DNA of 64,000 nucleotides from Emydura subglobosa (lineage: Eukaryota > Chordata > Testudines > Chelidae). Below are positions 1,251 to 41,842 of this stretch, one piece after another. How positions within the stretch are numbered: the first letter of the stretch is position 1; every line of letters begins with the position of its first letter. Both the position numbers and the translations under genes were made by a program. Location of the stretch: NCBI GenBank assembly GCA_007922225.1, contig ML679966.1, forward strand, positions 54,618,742 through 54,682,741, in the 5' to 3' direction. The notes below the pieces were generated by a model. It searched no databases. It worked only from the letters and a program-made list of their open reading frames with translations, and was not told the origin of the DNA.

Positions 1251-2487
1251 AGAACATAAGCATGATCATATTGGGTCAGATCAATGGTCCATCTAGCCCA
1301 GTTAGTTGTCTTCCAACAAAGGTCAGTGGCAGATGCTTCAGAGGGAATGAAAAGAACAGGACAATTATATAGCGATCCATCCCCTGTCATCTAGTCCCAG
1401 CTTCTAGCAGTCAGAGGTTCAAGGACACCCGAAGCATGGAGTTGCATCCTTGACCATCTTCCTAACAGCCATTGATGCACCTATCCTCCATGAACTTATC
1501 TAATTATTTTCTGAATCCAGTTATTCTTTTGGCATTCACAACACCCTAGGGCAACCAGTTCCACAGGTTGACTGTGCATTGTATGAAGAAATAGGTCCTT
1601 ACATTTGTTTTAAACCTGCCGCTTATTAATTTCAATGGGTGACCCCATGGTTTTTGTGCTTTGTGAAGGAGTAAATAGCACTGCCTATTCACTTTCTCCA
1701 CACCATTCATGATTTTATAGATCTCTATCATACCCCCCCTTAGTAGTCTCTTTTCTAAGCTAAACAGTCCCAGTCTTTTTAATCTTTCTTCATATGGAAA
1801 GCTGCTCCATATACATAATCATTTTTGTTGCCATTCTCTACACTTCTTCCAGTTCTAATATTTATTTTTTTGTGATGAGGCAACCAGAACTGCACACAGT
1901 ATTAAAGGTGTGGGTGTACCAGGGATTTATACAAAGATATTATACTATTTTCTGTCTTATTATCTATCCTTTTCCTAATGGTTCCTAACAGCTATTAACT
2001 TTTTTGACTGCCACTTCACATTGAGTGGATGGGTTCAGAAAACTCTCCACGATGACTCCAAGATCTCTTTCTTAAGTGGTAACATCTAATTTAGACCCTA
2101 TCATTTTGTCTGTATAGTTAGGATTATGTTTTCCAGTATGCAATACTTTGCATTTATGAACACTATATTTCATCTGTCATTTTGTTGCCCAGTCACCCAG
2201 TTTTGTGAGATCCCTTTGTAGCTCTTTGAAATCAGCTTTGGACTTAAGTATCTTGAGTGATTTTGCATGGTCCACAAATTTTGCCACTGTTTGCTCACTG
2301 TTCACCCCTTTTTTCAGATCATTTATAAATATGTGGAATAGCAGAGGTCCCAGAACAGATCCTTGGGGGACCCTGCTATATACCTCTCTCCCTTGTGAAA
2401 ACTGACCGTTTTTTTCCTACCCTTTGTTTCCCATCTTTCAACCAGTCACTGATCTATGTGATCAGTCACTCTTATCTCCTAACTCAT

Positions 2488-3105
2488 GGGCAGTAGGTGA
2501 AGCTTCCCATCGGAGAGACTAACTCCCCGTCCCGCCTCTTTTGCTCGCTGCTATGCCCACACTCCATCCCTGTTCCACCCCAGGCCCTGCCCTGTCCCCC
2601 GGCTCCACTCCCTACCTGCTTGCCACATGCATGCCTCTTTCTCCTTTCCTCCTCCTCCCTGCACAGATTCCCTCGCTGCTGCTCACCACATCCCTCCTCC
2701 CCTCCCCTACTTGGCCCCTCTTCCACTTCTCCACACGTCTGTTCTCCCAAGACACCTGCCGCTCATGCTCTCCATCCCTCCCCTGAGCCGGGCTTATTTA
2801 TATGCACCATGCAGGTACCCGGGTGGCTGAGGAAGTGGTATCTGCTACTCAGCTTCCTGGCTTCATCTGTCATCTCCCTGGGGAGTCAAGTGACCCAGGA
2901 AGCTTGAGTAACAGATACTGCCTCCTCAGCTGCCTGGGAACCTGCATGGTGCATAATAAATCAGCAAAAACTTCCATCGGAAGCCCACTCCCAGCATGGA
3001 GAGAAAAAAGCAGGGCCACCATTGCCCAGGCGTCCAAGCAGCAGGTTGTCGTTGGCTGAGCTAAGGGAGGTTTAGCCTCCCCTTGGCTATTATACCCATC
3101 ATCCA
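2488..3105. repeat. GC-rich insertion inside the CR1
   Basis: CR1 similarity stops after the sequence ending ctaactcatgg and resumes near catgccctcactgctt. The intervening ~620 bases are far richer in G+C than the flanks. The part at 2530-2790 is strongly pyrimidine-biased on the plus strand, and the part at 2794-2961 is an inverted repeat. Overlapping open frames here are a by-product of base composition. No target duplication is obvious. Confidence 0.6.
2794..2961. repeat. Inverted repeat, 67-bp arms, 34-bp loop
   Basis: The arm 2794-2860 is about 85% identical to the reverse complement of 2895-2961. For example, tgcaccatgcaggt on the left pairs with acctgcatggtgca on the right, and tcagcttcctgg pairs with ccaggaagcttga. 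Transcribed, it would fold into one long hairpin. It forms the right half of the GC-rich insertion in the CR1. Confidence 0.85.
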
Positions 3106-3195
3106 TGCCCTCACTGCTTACTTTGCTTAAGAGTCTTTGGTGTGGGAGTTTGTCAAAGGCTTTCTGAAAATCCAGGTACGCTACATCAACTGTAT

Positions 3196-4155
3196 TATAT
3201 CATGCTTGCATTATTGGTGCACTCTACCTCCCTAATATCTTTCAAATCATACGCTCACTTATATACATTTGTGAGGGAGAAAAACAGCTACATCTTCTAA
3301 CCTGCAGCATCAGCACAGGATAATTCTCCACTCCCATGCGGCCATGAAAAGAGACATCTGCAGCACCACAGCGCCTCACAGAAGGCTGAAATATGGATTT
3401 GCCAGGAATGTTGCCAGTGCAGGTGTGGATAGTGTGGAATCTACTGTCCCCAGTTCATTTTCAGGAGAGCAATGGACCATGCCTGTTAATCCTGCGTAAC
3501 ACTTCAGTAGCAATATGCTTCCTGGATGTACACGTGTCTTGTCCTTATTTTAACTCAGGATGTTTTGATTAGCCCTGCAGTTCCTCGCAGTTACAAGGAC
3601 TGTATTTGGGCTCTGTTTACTTCCTCAGGCCTGGGCTTCAAATCCCTATGACTATCAAACCAAGAAGCTATATACTGCTTTGGATGACTACGTATCTACA
3701 TTTCCCTTTTACTTCTTGTTGTCACTATTGTTTAAACAATTTTAGCGCATGAGTCATACAAACTGACAATCTCAATTTTCTAAGTTGGGGACCTCGTGTC
3801 AGGCAATTATTTTACATGATATTACTGTTATCTCTCGTGATTGTGCAATTCCCCCTGTAAAAGAATAGCATTTAATGTGCAGAGAAGTGGAGGCAAAGAA
3901 CTGGTTGACAGAATATTACAGCACCTACTGGTAATAATTTTTATTCATTCTCATTTGAAAAAAATGCTCTAAGTTTTTTCTTTATATAAATGAATTTGCA
4001 TATATGTTTCTCTGGAGTCAGCCAGATGTTTTATGTTTACTCAGTGCTTGGCCAAGGTGCACAGCCAATGTTGAGTAAATTATGCTTTTCCAGCTTAGAT
4101 GTCCTGGAAAATAGACAGAATGCTAGAATTTACATGATTTCTGCATTCAAGTCTG
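3196..4155. other. Unique DNA, no gene seen
   Basis: No coding region or recognised repeat. Composition returns to AT-rich. Confidence 0.45.
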
Positions 4156-20057: not shown

Positions 20058-21725
20058 TACATAAGACCAGCCATAATGGATCAAATTAATGGTCTATCTA
20101 GCCCAGTATGCTATGTTCCAACAGAGGCCAGTGCCAGATGTTTCAGATTGAATGAATCCATTCCCATCTTCTGACAGTTGGAGATTTAGGGACACCCAGG
20201 GCATGGGGTTGCATCCTTGATCATCTTGGTTAATAGCCATTGATGGACATATCCTCTGAACTTATGTAATTCTTTTTGGAATCCAGTTAATCTTTTGGCT
20301 TTCACAACATCCCATGGCAACGAGTTCCACAGGTTGACTATGCATTGCGTGGAAAAAAAACTTCCTTAAGTTTGTTTTAAACCTGCTGCCTATTAATTTC
20401 ATTGGGTGACCCCTGGTATTCATATTGCATGAAAGGGTAAATAACACTTCCCTCTTCACTTTCTCCATACCATTCATGATTTTATAGACCTCTATCATAT
20501 CCTCCCTCAGTTGTTGTTTTTTCTAAAATGAATAGTACCAGTCTTTTCAATCTCTCCTCATACAGAAGCTGTTCCAAACCCTGATCATTTTTGTTGCCCT
20601 TCTTTGAAACTTTTCAATTGTAATATCTTTTTTTGAGATGGGGAGACCAGAACCGCATGCAGTATTGTGTTGCTGACAGGTAAAGGGATCCCTGATTACC
20701 AAGCACCACGCTGAGGAAACAGTTTCTTAACTATTTACAAGTTTATTTGGGGCAAAGGGGATGTGGGGTTTTACAAGGGAAAAAGGAACAATATATATAA
20801 CAGAACTATCTACTTTCCTTAACGGGGATTTAAGCAGATTAGAAGGAGAACAAAACACAGAGTACACTAGATAACGATTATATGAGTTTCAAAAGTATAA
20901 TCAAATTAATGTTACTAATACCCGAAAACTATAACAAGAATACTATTTAAAATCTTACCACCACGAGGAACAGGGTCATGACGCCTGACCAATGGGGGAC
21001 ACAAGAAAAGCTTGGGTTCAAAACTCGGACCGGTTACACTCGACTCGACTCTTGCCCAGCAGAGGACTCGGGGGCGGGAAGAGGTAGCAGCTCCAGAGGA
21101 TCAGTCTGGCGGGCCGACAGCTCTTCTGCCAGGCCCGCCGAAATGCAGCAGTTATTATGCACTCGGGCTATGCTTGGTACATGAGTGGTGTGTAATATTC
21201 TTAACAGCCGATGGCTGCCCCTGTTCGTGAGAGGTGTGCAGTATTCGTAACAGCTGATGGCTGCCCCTGGACTTTTTGCAACGTCCCATTGTTTGCCATT
21301 TCAGACGTGCTATCTTAGGTGTGTCAGTCAGTAAAGGTCCCGATAAGGTCAGGTCTCAGGTGTACTGTAATTGCCAAGCGGGAGGGGGTGAGCGGGGGCG
21401 AGTGCCGGTCACTAGATATTATACTGTCGCCACATATTGAAGGGATGTGTGTGCGTGTGTGTACCATAGTTTATATAGTGGCAGTTTTGTATTTTCTGTT
21501 TTATTATCTATCCCTTTCCTAATGTTTCCTAGCAGTCTGTTAGTTTATTTGTTTTTGTTTGACTGCCACTGCACATTGAGCAGATGTTTTCAGAAAACTA
21601 TGCATGATAACTTTCAAGATCTTTCTTGAGTGGTAACAGCTAATTTAGAACCCATCATTTTGTATGTATAGTTGGGATAATATTTTCCAATGTGCGTGAG
21701 TACTTTACACTTATCAAGACTGAAT
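20058..21725 (-). mobile_element. CR1 LINE, minus strand, split by a solo LTR
   Basis: A second minus-strand CR1 tail. The complement of 20262-20498 encodes MIEVYKIMNGMEKV followed by RFKTNLRK, matching the copy at 1251-3195. CR1 sequence breaks at 20667 and continues at 21440, the gap being an exact LTR insertion. The CR1 part ends near 21725. Inactive: stops in all frames and most of the 5' region missing. Confidence 0.85.
20668..21434 (-). mobile_element. Solo LTR (ERV type), 767 bp, with 5-bp target duplication
   Basis: The segment starts TGTTGCTGACAGG and ends CTGTCGCCACA, giving the TG...CA termini of a retroviral-type LTR. It is flanked by TATTG on both sides (20663-20667 and 21435-21439). 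On the minus strand it begins TGTGGCGACAG and has an AATAAA signal near 20740, close to its 3' end, so transcription would run leftwards. Two copies of an approximately 45-base subrepeat (about 21182-21270, containing cagc(c/t)gatggctgcccctg) lie inside. No internal genes remain, so this is a solo LTR left by recombination. Confidence 0.9.
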
Positions 21726-35146: not shown

Positions 35147-35334
35147 TTCTCTCTTCGAGAGTTGCTCATATGCATTCCATGTAGGTGAGTGCGCGCCCCG
35201 TGCACGAGTCTGCGGAAGCTTTTTTGCCCTAGCAACCCCAGCGGTCGGTCCCGGCGCCCCCTGGAGTGGCGCGCATATAGCGCGGTATATAGGGCGCCGC
35301 CGACCGCGCGGGCCCCCAGTTCCTTCTTTCCGCC
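35147..35334 (+). repeat. DIRS left inverted terminal repeat
   Basis: It starts ttctctcttcgagag and runs to about the ctttccgcc at 35334. It matches the reverse complement of 41625-41804 with few differences, mostly C/T or G/A. It contains gcggtatatagggc near 35281, a possible TATA-like element for the element's own transcription. Confidence 0.93.
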
Positions 35335-35497
35335 TGTGACGGTCAGTGGAACGTCTGCCCCTTGCCTCTTCGCAAGTAGCAACCTCTAATCGTGTAGATA
35401 AGTTCTTTTTTGTTTTCTTAGATTACTATAGTCATTAGTAAATAGTTAGATAAGATAGTGTAAATAGTTAGCCCTTAGGGGCTCGTCCTTAGGAGCC

Positions 35498-38400
35498 ATG
35501 CCCGGCTCCATCGGGTTCAAGTCATGTGTGGCCTGCTCCAAGGTGTTCCCCGCCAGCGACCCGCATGATCGCTGCCTTAGGTGCCTCGGGGAACAACACT
35601 GAAAGGATAAGTGCCGCATTTGCAAATCATTCAAACCCCGCACTCAAAAGGACAGAGATGCTCGCCTCCGGGCGATCTTGATGGAGTCGGCACTTCGACC
35701 CGACTCGGAGCCCTCCAGATCACCAACGGCACTGAGCATCTCGTCGGTGCTCAGCGCTCCCTCAGCACTGACATCGACACCACCGGTACCGCTCAAGACG
35801 GCACCGAAGAAGAAAAAACGGCTGGCGGCCGTAACTATGGACTCCCCCCTGCGACTGGTACAGCAGGGGGTGATACAGGAGATGCCCCAGCCACGTGCCG
35901 TTGAGGATGTCCCGGCACCGGCATCTCCTCATAGGGAGCCTCCCCCGACCCCGGGGGGTGGGGGAGCGCCCCTACAAGGGCCGTCGACGCCGGAGGCGTT
36001 TACAGCGGCACGAGCCCTCATGGCCTTGCCTACGCCTCCGTCCCCCCCTCGGCCAAGGGCCTCGGGGACAGCGTCTCGGGGTAAGCCCGTGCTGGGCTAC
36101 TCCAGTGGGAGGAGGAGACGGGACTAGGTGTCTCCCCCCAGACGGTCGGGGAGAGGGAGAGCAACATCCTCCCCTCCCAGCTCCGACCATGAGTCGTAGA
36201 GCTCCTCCAAGACATGGCACCGGGCGTGCTCTGGAGGTTCCCGGGAGAGCTCCGCATCCAAAAGAAGATCTTCGGAGCCCCGGCACCGGTCAACGCTGCA
36301 GGGAAAGACCCGGACGAAAGAGTCACGGCACCACTCCCGCTCGTCTTCGGGCTCCCAGCACCGACCTTCACCGACGCTGGGCGCCTCGGTGCCGGCAAGA
36401 GATCGTCGTTCCCGATCGTTGGAGCACAGTCCGGTGCGGATCCCGGTGCCCCAGACCCGGCACTGGTCTAGATCCCCGGCTGCGCGCAGAGACAGGCGCC
36501 AATCCCGCTCAGTCAGTGGGCGGCGGGACACTTCGACACTCTGGGCTCGATCGCGTTCCCGGACTCCGAGCCCATCCCGCCCTTCGACACGCGATGCTCC
36601 TACATCGAGCCAGCATCACCCTCCGGCACCGAGGGTACGAGAGCGGTACCGACATACGCGATCGAGATCAGCTAGTCCGGTACGCTCGGAGGCACCGGGA
36701 AAGACATCGGGACACTACCGACGCTCCCGATCCCCGGTACCCAGAGACAGCCCGCGGTACCGAGGTAGATCGAGATCGCCAACGCGTTCTCCGACGCGAT
36801 GTGTGGTACCGAGGGAGGACACAGCACCACATCGGCGCTCCGGAGCCTCGGTACCGAGGGAGGGGCATTACCGCCAACGCTCGAGGTCCCTCTCAGACAG
36901 CCCGGTGCACCATTATCGGCACCGAAGGGTCTCTCAACCCCGTTCCCGCAGCCCGACGTGAGCCCCAGCACCAGGTGTCTCGGCACCGGGGGTCTTTCCG
37001 GTACCACAGGTTAGCCGAGAGAGACGGCGTTCGCGGAGTCCCAGAGGCCATACCAGGAAACATCGCCACAAAACGCGGAGGTACTCGTCTTCCTCCAGCG
37101 ACTCTCCATCACGCCGGCACAGCAAGCGCCGCCACCGCTCCCCCTCGTCGCGCAGCCCATCTCCAGCTAAAGGGCAGCGCAAAAGGAGCCGGAGATCTCC
37201 AAGCCCGGCTCACGCAACCATGGCGCCATACCCGGCACCAGGCCCGGTACCGACATGGGGGCAAGGCCCATGGCAATGGCCTTACTGGGGACCCTGGCCA
37301 CCACAGACAGTACAGGGGACAGGGTCATTCCCCTCATCCTCAAAGCCCCAACCTCCTCCCCCACCTAAGAGCGGATCGCAGGAGGAGCACCCACAAGGGG
37401 ATGACCAGTCGTTGGAGTACGAGTCCGACCCTATGGAGGGGCCATCCACGGATTCCCTACTGCAGTCCTCCTCCTCTTCTCCCCTGATACAACATCCAGG
37501 GACCAGAGGACCCCGCTGCCTGATTTTAAGGCGCACCAAGAGCTCCTGAAAAGGCTGGCAGAAAACCTTAAAATAGATCTCAAGGAGCTCTCGGAGGAGG
37601 AGGACCCCATCTTTGGCATTCCGGCCTCTGCGGGCCCTTCTAGAGTAGCGCTTCCAGTATATGACCGGGTACTGAAACTGGTCAAGCCTATCTGGGAGAC
37701 TCCTGCCTCGGTGGCCCCAACCTCAAAAACGGTGGAGCGGAAATACTATGTACTGCAGCAAGGGTTCGAGTACCTATATAACCACCCAGCCCCGGGCACC
37801 TTGGTTGTGGACGCCGTTAATCAGAGAGAACGGCAGGGTGCCCAGGCTAATACTCCCAAAAACAAGGAGTATAAGAAATTAGACCTTTTCGGGAGGAAGG
37901 TTTACTCGACCGCTGCTCTCCAGCTCCGCATAGCGAACCACCAGGCTCTTTTGGGGCGTTTATAATTTAAACCTATAATCATCGCTCCAGAGATTTACAT
38001 CAGCCCTACCTCAAGACCTCGCACTGATTTTACCACCTTGCTCCAGGAGGGGTCAACTGTCGGAGGAGCTACGATGCAGTCTGCCAGCGACGCTACAGAT
38101 GCGGCGGGTAGAGCCATGGCATCCGGCATAGTTATGCGCCGATCGTCCTGGCTGCAGTCCTCAGGCCTCTCAACCGAGGTACAACAGGCAATTCAAGATC
38201 TGCCCTTTGATGGTACAGGCCTGTTCTCGGACAAGACTGACAGTAAACTACACGCCCTGAAGGACTCGAGGGCCACCCTGAGATCATTGGGTCTGTATGT
38301 ACCTCAAGTGACGAGACGCCAGGGCAAACAACAGCCTCAGAGACAGCAGCAGACTGCTCCTAGGCTACCCCCCCGTCCATCACAACCTAGGAGAGGTCGG

Positions 38401-38541
38401 GACCGGTTCAGACAAACCAACCGCCGAGACGGTCCAGCCCCTGCCAAAGGTTCCCAATCAGGGCCGCGTAAAAACAATAAGCGCCCTTTTTTGATGGGAC
38501 GCTCGAGAGCGGCACCTCTGCCATTCCAACGGCCCTCGTAG
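35498..38541 (+). pseudogene. DIRS ORF1, gag-like protein with Cys pairs and Arg-Ser domain
   Basis: The ATG at 35498 opens a frame with paired cysteines (CVAC, CLRC, then CRIC), a zinc-binding pattern. A stop at 35600 interrupts it, and the same frame continues through 35678-36127. Further stops lie at 36125 and near 36197. Between about 36380 and 37210 it is packed with Arg-Ser dipeptides (RSRSRTPSPSRP, RSRSPTRSPTR), like the RS domains of splicing factors, with another stop at 36959-36961. A frame change just before 37501 leads into a conserved C-terminal region (LPDFKAHQELLKRLAENL; DPIFGIPASAGPSRVALPV). One stop follows at 37963, then a basic Gln/Arg-rich tail ending at 38541. It presumably coats element RNA. 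It overlaps the RT frame by about 60 bases. Confidence 0.85.
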
Positions 38542-40424
38542 CCGATCAGGATCATACCCTTCCCTTCAAAGACAGGCTTCGGCCTTTCCTCCAAGAGCGG
38601 CAGGGCATAACCTCAGACCGCTGGGTGCTAAGTGTGGTGCGGAGAGGTTACGCCTTGCAGCTCTCGGCTTTCCCACCGGATTCCCCCCCTACCCCGTCCC
38701 TCTTCAGGGACCCCTCTCACAAGCAGCTCCTCCTCCAGGAGGTCTGCTCCCTGCTCCGCCTAGGGGCAGTAGAGGAAGTCCCACCTACGGAAAGGGGCAG
38801 GGGGTTTTATTCCTGGTATTTCCTTATCCCCAAGGCAAAGGGAGGCCTCCGGCCTATTCTGGACCTGCGCCGCCTCAACAAGTTCATCAGGCGGCTCAAG
38901 TTCCACATGGTCTCCCTAGCCTCCATCATTCCCATACTGGATCCTGGGGATTGGTATGCCGCTTTCGACTTAAAAGACGCATATTTTCATGTCTATCCTC
39001 CCTGGCCATAGGCGTTTCCTACGGTTCATACTAGCTGGTGGCCACTACCAATTTTCAGCCCTTCCCTTTGGCCTGTCCTCAGCACCCAGGGTCTTCACCA
39101 AGTGCATGGCGGTGGTGGCGGCCTACCTGCAGCGCAGAGGCGTTCAAATTTTCCCCTACCTAGACGATTGGTTACTTCGGGGAAGGTCCAGACTTCATGT
39201 CATAAACAGCTTAGCCCTAACGTGCACGACATGCAACAGACTGGGGCTGCTCATAAACGAGCAGAAATCCACGCTGACCCCAGTACAGCGCATAGAATTC
39301 ATTGGGGCCACCCTAGATGCAGTGCAGGCCAGGGCCTTCCTCCCACAACCCCAGTTCCAAGCTATGACAGCCATCATTTCCGAGCTACAGAGATTCCCCA
39401 CGACAACAGCCAGGCACTGCCTTCAGCTGTTGGGGCACATGGCGGCATGTACATATGTGGTGAGGCTGGCTCGTCTCAGAATCAGGCCCCTGCAGGGGTG
39501 GTTAGCCTCAGTTTATGACACTCTCTGAGCAAGGTAGTCACGGTTCCACCCCAGGTCCTAGCGTCCCTGAACTGATGGACAGACCCGAGACAGATAATGG
39601 AAGGAGTCTCATTTGCAGACATGGTCCCCTCTGTAACACTGATTACAGATGCTTCCGACATCGGGTGGGGTGCCCACATGACCCACGGCCTCAGTACACA
39701 AGGCCAATGGTCAATACAGGAAAGATTGCTCCACATAAACATTCGGGAGCTCCGAGCAGTACTTCTAGCCTGCAAGGTTTTTCTCCGCTTTCTGAAAGGA
39801 AGGGTGGTGCAAGTCCTTACAGACAACACCGCAACGATGTTTTACATCAACAGACAAGGGGGAGCACGCTCCTCGGCCTTGTGCCACGAGGCATTGCAGC
39901 TATGGGACCTCGCGGTGAGGTACGATTTCCATCTGGTTGCGTCTCACCTCCCAGGGGTGAGGAACGACGAGGCAGACCGCCTCAGCAGGTCGTTTTTACC
40001 CCGCCACGAATGGTCACTTCATGGGGAGGTTACAGCGTTTCTCTTCCGCAAGTGGGGAGTTCCCCATCTGGACCTCTTTGCCACACTACAGAACAGAAAA
40101 TGCCCACTATTTTGCTCCCTGCGCGGGCGTGAACAGAACTCCATTTCGGACGCGTTCCTGATACACTGGTCGGGGCCACTACTCTATGCGTTTCCCCCGA
40201 TCCCACTGCTTCCCAAGGTGCTCTTGAAAGTCAAGAGGGACAGAGCAGATATCATCTTGATCGCACCAGCATGGCCGAGACAGCACTGGTACAGTATGCT
40301 GCTCGACCTCTCCATCGCCACACCGCTCCCGAGACACTACGCTCTCCTCTCCCAGGAACAGGGTCGCCTGCTCCACCCAGACCTGGACTCCCTCCACCTG
40401 ATGGCATGGAGGCTCCATGGCTAG
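38481..40424 (+). pseudogene. DIRS ORF2, reverse transcriptase - RNase H - methyltransferase-like
   Basis: The frame opens at 38481, overlapping the end of gag, with no early ATG, as is usual for DIRS. Reverse transcriptase: RWVLSVVRRGYALQL, LRPILDLRRLNKFI, motif A AAFDLKDAYFHV, a frameshift near 38995, LPFGLSSAPRVFTK, and YLDD at 39157-39168. After another frameshift near 39520 and a TGA in the linker comes RNase H: LITDASDIGWGAHM (Asp codon 39648-39650), INIRELRAVLLA and VLTDNTATMFY (Asp codon 39822-39824). The C-terminal DIRS methyltransferase-like domain spans about 40066-40300 (LDLFATLQNRKCPLF, YAFPPIPLLPKVLLK, IAPAWPRQHW). Intact copies would copy RNA to DNA in the usual rolling, circle-forming way of this order. 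Confidence 0.92.
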
Positions 40425-41460
40425 CAGAGGGAGAGAGGGCTTGTTCGGAACAAGTCCAGCGCGTCCTGCTGGGAAGCAGGAAACCTTCCACCCAGGTTGT
40501 ATACCGGGCAAAGTGGAGACGTTTCAGTTATTGGGCACAGTCACGTGGCATTTTGCCACTGGACTCAACCATACAGGCCATCCTAGACTATCTCCTACAC
40601 CTAAAAATGCAGGGCCTTGCCCTGGCCTCCCTAAGGGTACATCTGGCGGCCATCTCGGCCTTCCATTGCCCAGTGGAGGGGAGATCTATCTTCTCTCACC
40701 CAATGTCCATTAGGTTTCTCAAGGGTATAGAGAGGCTGTTCCCACAAGTTCGTGAACCTCTGCCTCTCTGGGACTTAAATCAGGTCCTCACTATTCTCAC
40801 AGGTCCCCCCTTCGAGCCTATGGCTACATGCCCACTTCTGGTCCTGTCGTGGAAGGTAGCCTTCCTGGTAGCCATTACATCGGCTAGGAGGGTCTCCGAG
40901 TTAAGAGCCCTAACCTCAGACCCTCCTTATACAGTCTTCTATAAGGATAAAGTGCGACTGAGACCGCACCCGGCCTTCTTGCCTAAGGTGGTGTCCCAGT
41001 TTCATTATAACCAAGATATCTTCCTCCCCGTGTTTTTTCCCAAACCACACGGATCGGAGGAGGAGCGGAGATGGCACTCACTGGACGTCAGGCGAGCCTT
41101 AGCTTTCTACATAGACCAGACCAAGCCGTTCCGGAAGTCCACGCAACTCTTCGTCGCAGTGGCGGACCGCATGAAAGGCTCACCTGTCTCCACCCAGTGC
41201 ATCTCCTCCTGGATCACCACCTGCATCCGCACCTGTTATGAGATGGCAAAGGTACCACTCCCGGGACCGATTACGGCGCACTCAACCAGAGCCAAGCCAC
41301 CTCGGCGGCGTTCCTGGAACGAGTGCCCGTGCAAGATATCTGCAGAGCTACAACCTGGTCATCGGTCCATACCTTCACCTCCCATTACGCCATCGTGCAG
41401 CAGGCAAGAGAGGACGCAGCAGTCGGCAGAGCCGTGCTGAGAAGGGCTTCTCGCAACTGA
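40271..41460 (+). pseudogene. DIRS ORF3, tyrosine recombinase
   Basis: It starts with the ATG at 40271, overlapping ORF2 by about 150 bases. The N-terminal SAM-like core-binding region is visible (STQVVYRAKWRRFSYWAQ; LRVHLAAISAFH). The catalytic domain has the first Arg in ITSARRVSELRAL (codon 206) and HSTR with His 337 and Arg 340. A single-base frameshift just after 41290 follows. In the corrected phase the sequence continues with a conserved AAFLERVPVQDIC stretch and a SHYAI segment carrying the nucleophile Tyr (codon 41386-41388), ending at the TGA 41458-41460. In intact elements it integrates the circular DNA without target duplication. This copy is inactive through the frameshift. Confidence 0.92.
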
Positions 41461-41493
41461 CTCCTTCCCACCACCAAAGGCATGGCTATATAA

Positions 41494-41594
41494 TCACCTA
41501 CATGGAATGCATATGAGCAACTCTCGAAGAGAGAAAACAGGGTTACTTACCAATAACTGTTGTTCTTCGAGATGTGTTGCTCATATCCATTCCA
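41494..41594 (-). repeat. DIRS internal complementary region
   Basis: The left half (41494 to about 41535) is the reverse complement of the element's left end. The right half (about 41535-41594) is the reverse complement of its right end. The whole therefore reads, on the minus strand, as the two ends joined head to tail. In the DIRS replication model this segment templates completion of the ends and circle closure. Confidence 0.93.
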
Positions 41595-41624
41595 AACCCA
41601 CCCTCCGTCCCCACTGTCGGAATC

Positions 41625-41842
41625 GGCAGAAAGAAGGGACTGGGGGCCCGCGTGGTCGGCGGCGCCCTATATACCGCGCTATACGTGCGCCACTCCAGGG
41701 GGCGCCGGGATCGACTGCTGGGGTTGCTAGGGCAAAAAAACTTCCGCAGACTCGTGCACGGGGCGCGCACTCACCTACATGGAATGGATATGAGCAACAC
41801 ATCTCGAAGAACAACAGTTACTGGTAAGTAACCCTGTTTTCT
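41625..41842 (-). repeat. DIRS right inverted terminal repeat with outer extension
   Basis: 41625-41804 mirrors the left repeat. The outer part (about 41805-41842, aacaacagttactggtaagt then aaccctgttttct) has no counterpart at the left end, so the right repeat is about 30 bases longer. The ICR confirms both end sequences independently. Confidence 0.92.

What the first reader, a model, noticed from the sequence alone, without database searches (positions are those of the whole stretch)
35147..41842. End-to-end DIRS tyrosine-recombinase retrotransposon
Inverted terminal repeats, an internal complementary region, gag-like protein, RT (YLDD), RNase H, methyltransferase-like domain and tyrosine recombinase are all present in one 6.7-kb unit. 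DIRS elements are a minority order among vertebrate retroelements and are rarely seen this complete. Most disabling changes are single stops or frameshifts, so the domain layout can be described fully.
Basis: partly seen in the sequence, partly recalled or inferred. Interest (0 to 1): 0.8.

Follow-up and report, generated by a model that had tools for sequence, protein, structure and literature searches.

The report
Decayed DIRS retrotransposon copy, probably turtle
This is one decayed, nearly full-length copy of an abundant jumping-gene family of a known type (DIRS) in what is probably a turtle genome; it is ordinary in kind, except that its relatives seem to keep a second reading frame open across part of the polymerase gene for reasons not yet explained.

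Summary
Window 35147-41840 is an end-to-end DIRS-like retrotransposon: inverted terminal repeats (174 nt, 95% complementary), an internal complementary region (ICR) matching both ends (1 mismatch in 101), a broken gag with a LAP2alpha-related C-terminal part, RT (YLDD), RNase H, a weak Dam-like domain and a Cre-like tyrosine recombinase. It is not rare or unusually complete in its genome: a right-end pattern matches 1811 + 1807 times, and 17 of the 40 best right ends pair with one of the 40 best left ends. The recombinase groups with turtle DIRS proteins; turtle DIRS with hundreds to thousands of copies are already published. New detail: host TT precedes 39 of 39 other left ends (GTT in 24); 4 of 71 readable loci lie inside other DIRS copies, three of them at an ICR; and the recombinase-phase frame across RNase H-methyltransferase has no stop in 12 of 15 other copies (5.0-6.8 expected by synonymous shuffling, 7 copies tested), although its amino acids are not conserved. 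This suggests, without proof, that the frame is translated as an unconstrained linker, perhaps by recoding out of gag; a T_TTT_TTG lies where the frames meet. Verdict: new member of a known kind.

The parts
35147..35148 (+). TT at the left host/element junction (host NTT, here CTT)
   Evidence: 39 of 39 other fetched left ends also carry TT here
35149..35334 (+). left terminal repeat; 35161-35334 is the 174-nt arm complementary to 41625-41798
   Evidence: left 40 nt match the ICR 40/40
35498..38541 (+). gag-like gene, broken: five stops and one frame change; N-terminal CxxC...HxxCxxC, central arginine/serine-rich part, LAP2alpha-related C-terminal part
   Evidence: frame supported by third positions having the most changes in 14 of 16 copies
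37405..38538 (+). gag C-terminal region related to turtle proteins with the LAP2alpha domain (PF11560)
   Evidence: (only 37405-37962 was searched); 37966-38538 resembles P0178 by eye; direct Pfam search of the window pieces found no LAP2alpha match
38487..38493 (+). T_TTT_TTG in gag phase, possible -1 frameshift site inside the gag/pol overlap (inferred)
   Evidence: read; no unusual RNA structure downstream (z -0.08)
38481..39528 (+). reverse transcriptase, broken by a frame change near 38975-39008; YLDD at 39157-39168
   Evidence: RVT_1 E 0.01 and 2.7e-12 for the two pieces
39627..40010 (+). RNase H domain
40011..40421 (+). methyltransferase-like domain; the presumed motif IV position reads FPP
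38495..40424 (+). second open frame over pol, in the phase of the recombinase gene; one stop in the window (40130) away from the two pol frame changes
   Evidence: only the part 39576-40421 was tested in other copies
40133..41290 (+). tyrosine recombinase gene up to HSTR (41279-41290)
41291..41461 (+). rest of the recombinase in another frame, with the likely catalytic Tyr codon at 41386-41388 (by eye against the consensus, inferred)
41494..41594 (+). internal complementary region: 41494-41533 pairs with the left end, 41534-41594 with the right end
41625..41840 (+). right terminal repeat and right extension, ending in TTTT 41837-41840

Best explanation
It is a decayed copy of a DIRS-like tyrosine-recombinase retrotransposon from a turtle lineage. 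Shown here: the architecture, the predicted folds of RNase H and recombinase, the abundance, junctions at host NTT with no target-site duplication seen in the flanks, and third-position bias among copies in gag, RNase H-methyltransferase and recombinase. Inferred from the published DIRS model: the RNA is reverse transcribed, the ICR bridges the two ends so that a circle with the junction CCCTGTTTTCTCTC forms, and the recombinase recombines that junction with a genomic (G/A)TT(T/C) site. As it stands, with gag, pol and recombinase all broken, this copy cannot encode intact proteins.
For: Inverted repeats and ICR. Recombinase: 97 related proteins among the 7992 candidates scored, the 12 best rows turtles; set of 14 rows, the window and 13 turtle rows, SH-aLRT 99; Cre by profile and fold. 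RNase H. RT. Junctions: 39 of 39 other left ends have TT, the base before it G 24, A 9, T 4, C 2; 36 of 39 other right ends end in TTTT, 2 in TT only, 1 in ATTTT. The next host base is T 25, C 9, A 2 of 36. No shared word of 5 or more at the two junctions in 16 of 17 two-ended copies, the window included. Abundance.
Against: No empty site was obtained, so absence of a target duplication rests on comparing the two flanks only; one of 17 copies (L061/L062) shares a 7-base word three bases off the junctions, and one left end (L043) differs in its first element bases. The methyltransferase assignment is weak. Circles, transcripts and proteins cannot be seen in sequence. No PAT, Ngaro, VIPER or Crypton rows were in the tree. 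The host's name is not known.
Confidence: 0.96

Rival explanations
1. PAT-like or Ngaro-like element, with split direct repeats.
For: The same kinds of domain are present: gag-like, RT, RNase H, recombinase.
Against: Terminal repeats are inverted with an internal complementary region, and no split direct repeats were found. A methyltransferase-like region is present, which Ngaro lacks according to PMC3266345 (background section read).
Confidence: 0.02
2. The open recombinase-phase frame over pol is an accident of codon usage, without translation.
For: Its amino acids are not conserved: pol third positions vary as freely there (603 changes in 12655 compared sites, 15 copies) as third positions in the recombinase-only part (556 in 13625, 16 copies). 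Three of 15 copies (L135 with four, L137 and L148 with one each) and the window copy carry stops in it. The same kind of shuffle test gave P 0.0045 for another frame, over gag, that other copies show to be a chance opening. In simulations of random synonymous change the probability of no stop was 0.007 to 0.26 in 16 pairs, so single pairs are not decisive.
Against: 0-1 stops against 5.0-6.8 expected under synonymous shuffling in 7 copies (P 0.009 or less each); the same offset in their recombinase-only part is at expectation, and in gag too. Eight copies were given; L135, which has four stops, was skipped there for a gap. In the window itself P is 0.02, 0.14 and 0.018 for three pol pieces. All 7 stops seen in the frame are private to one copy. 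The copies are related, so these are not independent tests.
Confidence: 0.4
3. The open frame is translated: ribosomes leave gag near T_TTT_TTG (38487-38493), one shift giving Gag-Pol and another giving a Gag-recombinase fusion with a disposable linker.
For: The stop-avoidance data above. Gag (phase 1), pol (phase 0) and the recombinase frame (phase 2) all meet at 38481-38541, and the recombinase frame opens right after 38494. It has no Met from 38495 to 39031 in the window. Parts of nine database proteins match the window's frame over RNase H-methyltransferase (E 1e-4 or better, 29-38% identity), so the frame is open in some other reptiles as annotated.
Against: No special RNA structure downstream. 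The site could not be checked in other copies. A second shift into phase 2 needs a separate mechanism. Splicing would serve as well.
Confidence: 0.25

Closest known systems
AcDIRS1 and AcDIRS2 of Anolis carolinensis (PMC3266345, Table 3, section read)
   Same: Reptile DIRS-like elements with inverted repeats of similar size, ICR halves of 40-58 and 39-60 nt (here 40 and 61), right extension of 26-28 nt; AcDIRS2 has TTT start, AAA junction and a long ORF overlap
   Different: Those are 5.9-6.0 kb; this one is 6.69 kb, longer than all 28 elements of that table (largest 6283 bp). AcDIRS2 ends in TGT and AcDIRS1 lacks the long overlap
Turtle DIRS1-like elements behind the LAP2alpha domain (PMC4495291, abstract and section 3.2 read)
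   Same: Turtle hosts, high copy number, ORF1 related to LAP2alpha, inverted terminal repeats
   Different: The parts read do not describe junctions, nested insertion or the overlap frame
DIRS-1 of Dictyostelium (PMC5633606, passages read)
   Same: ICR, overlapping ORFs, reported preference for inserting into its own copies
   Different: Insertion into own copies is said there to lack apparent sequence preference; here three of four nested cases lie at an ICR

Membership tests
DIRS-like retrotransposon | inverted terminal repeats | tested here: met
   174 nt, 95% complementary
DIRS-like retrotransposon | internal complementary region matching both ends | tested here: met
   1 mismatch in 101
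DIRS-like retrotransposon | RT with Y(L/I)DD and RNase H | tested here: met
DIRS-like retrotransposon | methyltransferase domain after RNase H | tested here: inconclusive
   conserved domain in relatives, Pfam Dam in 9 of 41 members at E 0.01 or better, none in the window piece; the fold was not tested alone
DIRS-like retrotransposon | tyrosine recombinase | tested here: met
DIRS-like retrotransposon | NTT at the ends | tested here: met
   39 of 39 other left ends; right ends TTTT 36, TT 2, ATTTT 1 of 39
DIRS-like retrotransposon | no target-site duplication | tested here: inconclusive
   none seen in the flanks of 16 of 17 two-ended copies; one shares 7 bases off register; no empty site was obtained
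DIRS-like retrotransposon | RT/RH phylogeny with DIRS | not tested
   no reference rows of PAT, Ngaro or VIPER in hand; only a recombinase tree
PAT-like / Ngaro-like | split direct repeats | tested here: not met
LTR retrotransposon | long direct terminal repeats and DDE integrase | tested here: not met
   no long direct repeats; no integrase family in 10 pieces
Crypton | recombinase without reverse transcriptase | tested here: not met
   RT present

The most novel reading that the evidence does not exclude
Selection keeps a second reading frame open through the whole pol gene of this DIRS family without caring which amino acids it encodes, because the recombinase is made as the end of a long recoded protein that starts in gag; pol and recombinase would be two alternative recoding products from one site.
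Probability: 0.25. Interest if true: 0.6.

Novelty: new member of a known kind. Interest (0 to 1): 0.3.

Why it matters
As an element it adds a described reptile DIRS family with well over a thousand 3' ends. What could matter more is how DIRS recombinase is expressed: long ORF overlaps were reported in half of 28 DIRS elements (PMC3266345), and copies here show an overlap that appears to be kept open but not conserved, which is testable. The junction data give a target preference, (G/A)TT(T/C), and a few nested cases point to insertion into ICRs of other copies, as expected if the recombinase recognises the circle junction.

Tried and rejected
1) Target-site resemblance: the window's left flank ACCCTGGCTT resembles the circle junction ACCCTGTTTT. 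Other copies do not show it, apart from a nested one, and near matches are common by chance (10 seen, 6.6 expected at up to 1 mismatch). Rejected as a general rule; only TT, usually with G or A before it, is general.

2) A second gag gene: 35874-37487 is an uninterrupted 537-codon frame over gag (0 stops against 3.6 expected, P 0.0045). In 16 of 16 other copies that frame has at least one stop, and in 14 of 16 the third position of the other frame has the most changes. Rejected; a chance opening, and a warning about P values of this size from the shuffle test.

3) Homology of two gag pieces and the recombinase piece to solved structures by single sequence: nothing below E 0.1. Profiles worked for pol and the recombinase.

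4) The fold of the methyltransferase-like part was not tested on its own; the RNase H half filled the match lists. Absence of a methyltransferase in those lists means nothing.

5) Not done because the genome server stopped answering: empty-site search, genome-wide count of insertions into ICRs, gag/pol junction in other copies.

6) One search took 30 pattern loci. The 18 from minus-strand matches were not oriented and were dropped, so its printed totals (20 and 12) are not usable; of the other 12, four were typed ICR (one, L024, with a host-like flank, left out as unclear) and eight right ends were kept. In one search the printed total of mismatches is not usable: one edge base lies outside the ICR in each row and L007 was out of register; only the window figure is used. 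In one search the row YRnonover was read in the wrong phase; one search gives the correct control.

Full report
What is there. The window holds a complete DIRS-type unit from 35147 (host/element TT) to 41840. One search found inverted arms 35161-35334 and 41625-41798 (174 nt, 95% complementary), a 63-nt pair inside the right end (41532-41594 with 41780-41842, 98%) and a 50-nt pair of the left end with 41494-41543 (96%). Counting only element bases, the internal complementary region (ICR) 41494-41594 matches the left end 40/40 and the right end 60/61. No long direct repeats of LTR or split type appear.

Host and abundance. In a tree of 48 recombinase rows, the window and 47 hits chosen by me from the 97, the window falls in a set of 14 rows, itself and 13 turtle rows (SH-aLRT 99, quick search). 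The best RNase H-methyltransferase hit is Emydura at 74% identity. The host is therefore probably a turtle; its name is not given. In the source genome (1.93 Gb) a 29-base right-end pattern with up to one mismatch has 1811 forward and 1807 reverse matches and none for the reversed control. An intact 3' end gives two matches, one from the ICR, and many listed places are single, so this is roughly 1800 to 3600 ends. The 40 best right ends and the 40 best left ends, scored out of 4300 and 3444 candidates, include 17 same-strand pairs about one element apart, the window included. So completeness is not rare here.

Junctions. I fetched flanks of all 39 other left ends scored and all 39 other right ends scored. 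TT precedes the left end in 39 of 39, although one of them (L043) has changed first element bases. The base before TT is G 24, A 9, T 4, C 2; G before TT is 17% in the window's other DNA. Right ends read CCCTG (one CCATG) followed by TTTT in 36, TT only in 2, and ATTTT in 1 of 39. The next host base is T 25, C 9, A 2 of 36. In 17 two-ended copies, the window included, 16 share no word of 5 or more at the two junctions; one shares 7 bases, three bases off register. The simplest reading is that the target is (G/A)TT(T/C) and that TT is shared. Two nested cases fit this, as their host sequence would otherwise need six T; the two TT-only right ends do not fit it without a loss of TT. Piednoel et al. 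report NTT ends for 23 of 28 elements and a 3-bp junction (PMC3266345: background, distribution and in-depth sections read, plus passages).

Nesting. Of 71 loci with readable flanks (62, and the window), 4 lie inside another DIRS copy: two exactly at the ICR junction (L059/R060 and R116), one in the ICR region of a diverged relative (L072), one in coding sequence (L065/R066). L092 lies 29 bases from another DIRS end and is not counted. If ICR and terminal repeats make up 0.1% of the genome, three such cases have P about 6e-5; if all DIRS is 1.4%, four have P 0.019 (computed with n 72). The shares are assumptions, not measurements. Dictyostelium DIRS-1 is reported to favour its own copies (PMC5633606, passages read).

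Selection and the overlap. In 16 gag pieces of other copies (77.6-96.3% identical to the window) the third position of the gag frame has the most changes in 14, not in the two closest; 8 of 16 have no stop in that stretch. In 16 pieces of the 3' half (one, L139, is unrelated in the RNase H-methyltransferase part and is left out there) changes at first, second and third positions are 173, 128, 603 in RNase H-methyltransferase and 116, 133, 556 in the recombinase-only part. So both were under selection in the lineages that gave these copies. RNase H-methyltransferase itself has no stop in 14 of 15. The recombinase phase over it has no stop in 12 of 15 copies; the third phase has 11-15. All 7 stops in the recombinase phase, the window's at 40130 and four in L135 included, are private to one copy. 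Synonymous shuffles predict 5.0-6.8 stops where 7 copies show 0 or 1 (P 0.009 or less each); the same offset in the recombinase-only part shows what shuffles predict, as does gag. L135 was among the eight given to that script and was skipped for a gap. In the window P is 0.02, 0.14 and 0.018 for three pol pieces. Random synonymous change between pairs of copies would leave no stop with probability 0.007 to 0.26 (16 pairs). Against this reading: the same test gave P 0.0045 for a gag frame that proved to be a chance opening, and the copies are related. In the window's RT part the only stops in the recombinase phase are 38492, at the gag/pol overlap, and 39009 and 39516, next to its two frame changes; the RT part was not tested in other copies. 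Pol third positions are as free in the overlap as third positions in the recombinase-only part, so the amino acids of the open frame do not seem to matter. I take this as maintained openness without conserved sequence. My preferred cause is translation of the frame as a linker, entered from gag; a T_TTT_TTG lies at 38487-38493 in gag phase, but no RNA structure supports it (z -0.08), and other copies could not be read because the server stopped answering. Long ORF overlaps as such are published (PMC3266345). Whether stop avoidance has been tested is unknown to me: the listings (4 of 4 papers shown; 20 of 53; 10 of 23) show no such paper by title or abstract start, and the library lacks most subscription journals.

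Verdict. A well-known kind of element, a new member with useful detail; interest modest.

Noticed in passing
L065 / L066 (C21:6401756-6408398): A copy inserted in another DIRS where the left flank is RT sequence and the right flank is recombinase sequence about 1.8 kb further on; host element deleted, or insertion with deletion.
   Followed up: partly
L139 (C7:76899315-76901135): A copy whose recombinase part is 96% identical to the window but whose RNase H-methyltransferase part does not align (57%), so an internal deletion, replacement or rearrangement.
   Followed up: no
window 1254-2000 and 20059-21535: Two copies of a dispersed repeat, 78-86% alike in blocks; possibly a CR1-type element (recalled, not tested).
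   Followed up: no
window 35874-37487: Uninterrupted 537-codon frame over gag in this copy; not open in 16 of 16 other copies.
   Followed up: yes
P0184: A predicted Emydura C-type lectin protein ends in a piece of DIRS gag (60% identity over 45% of the query), perhaps a gene-prediction fusion or exonised gag.
   Followed up: no
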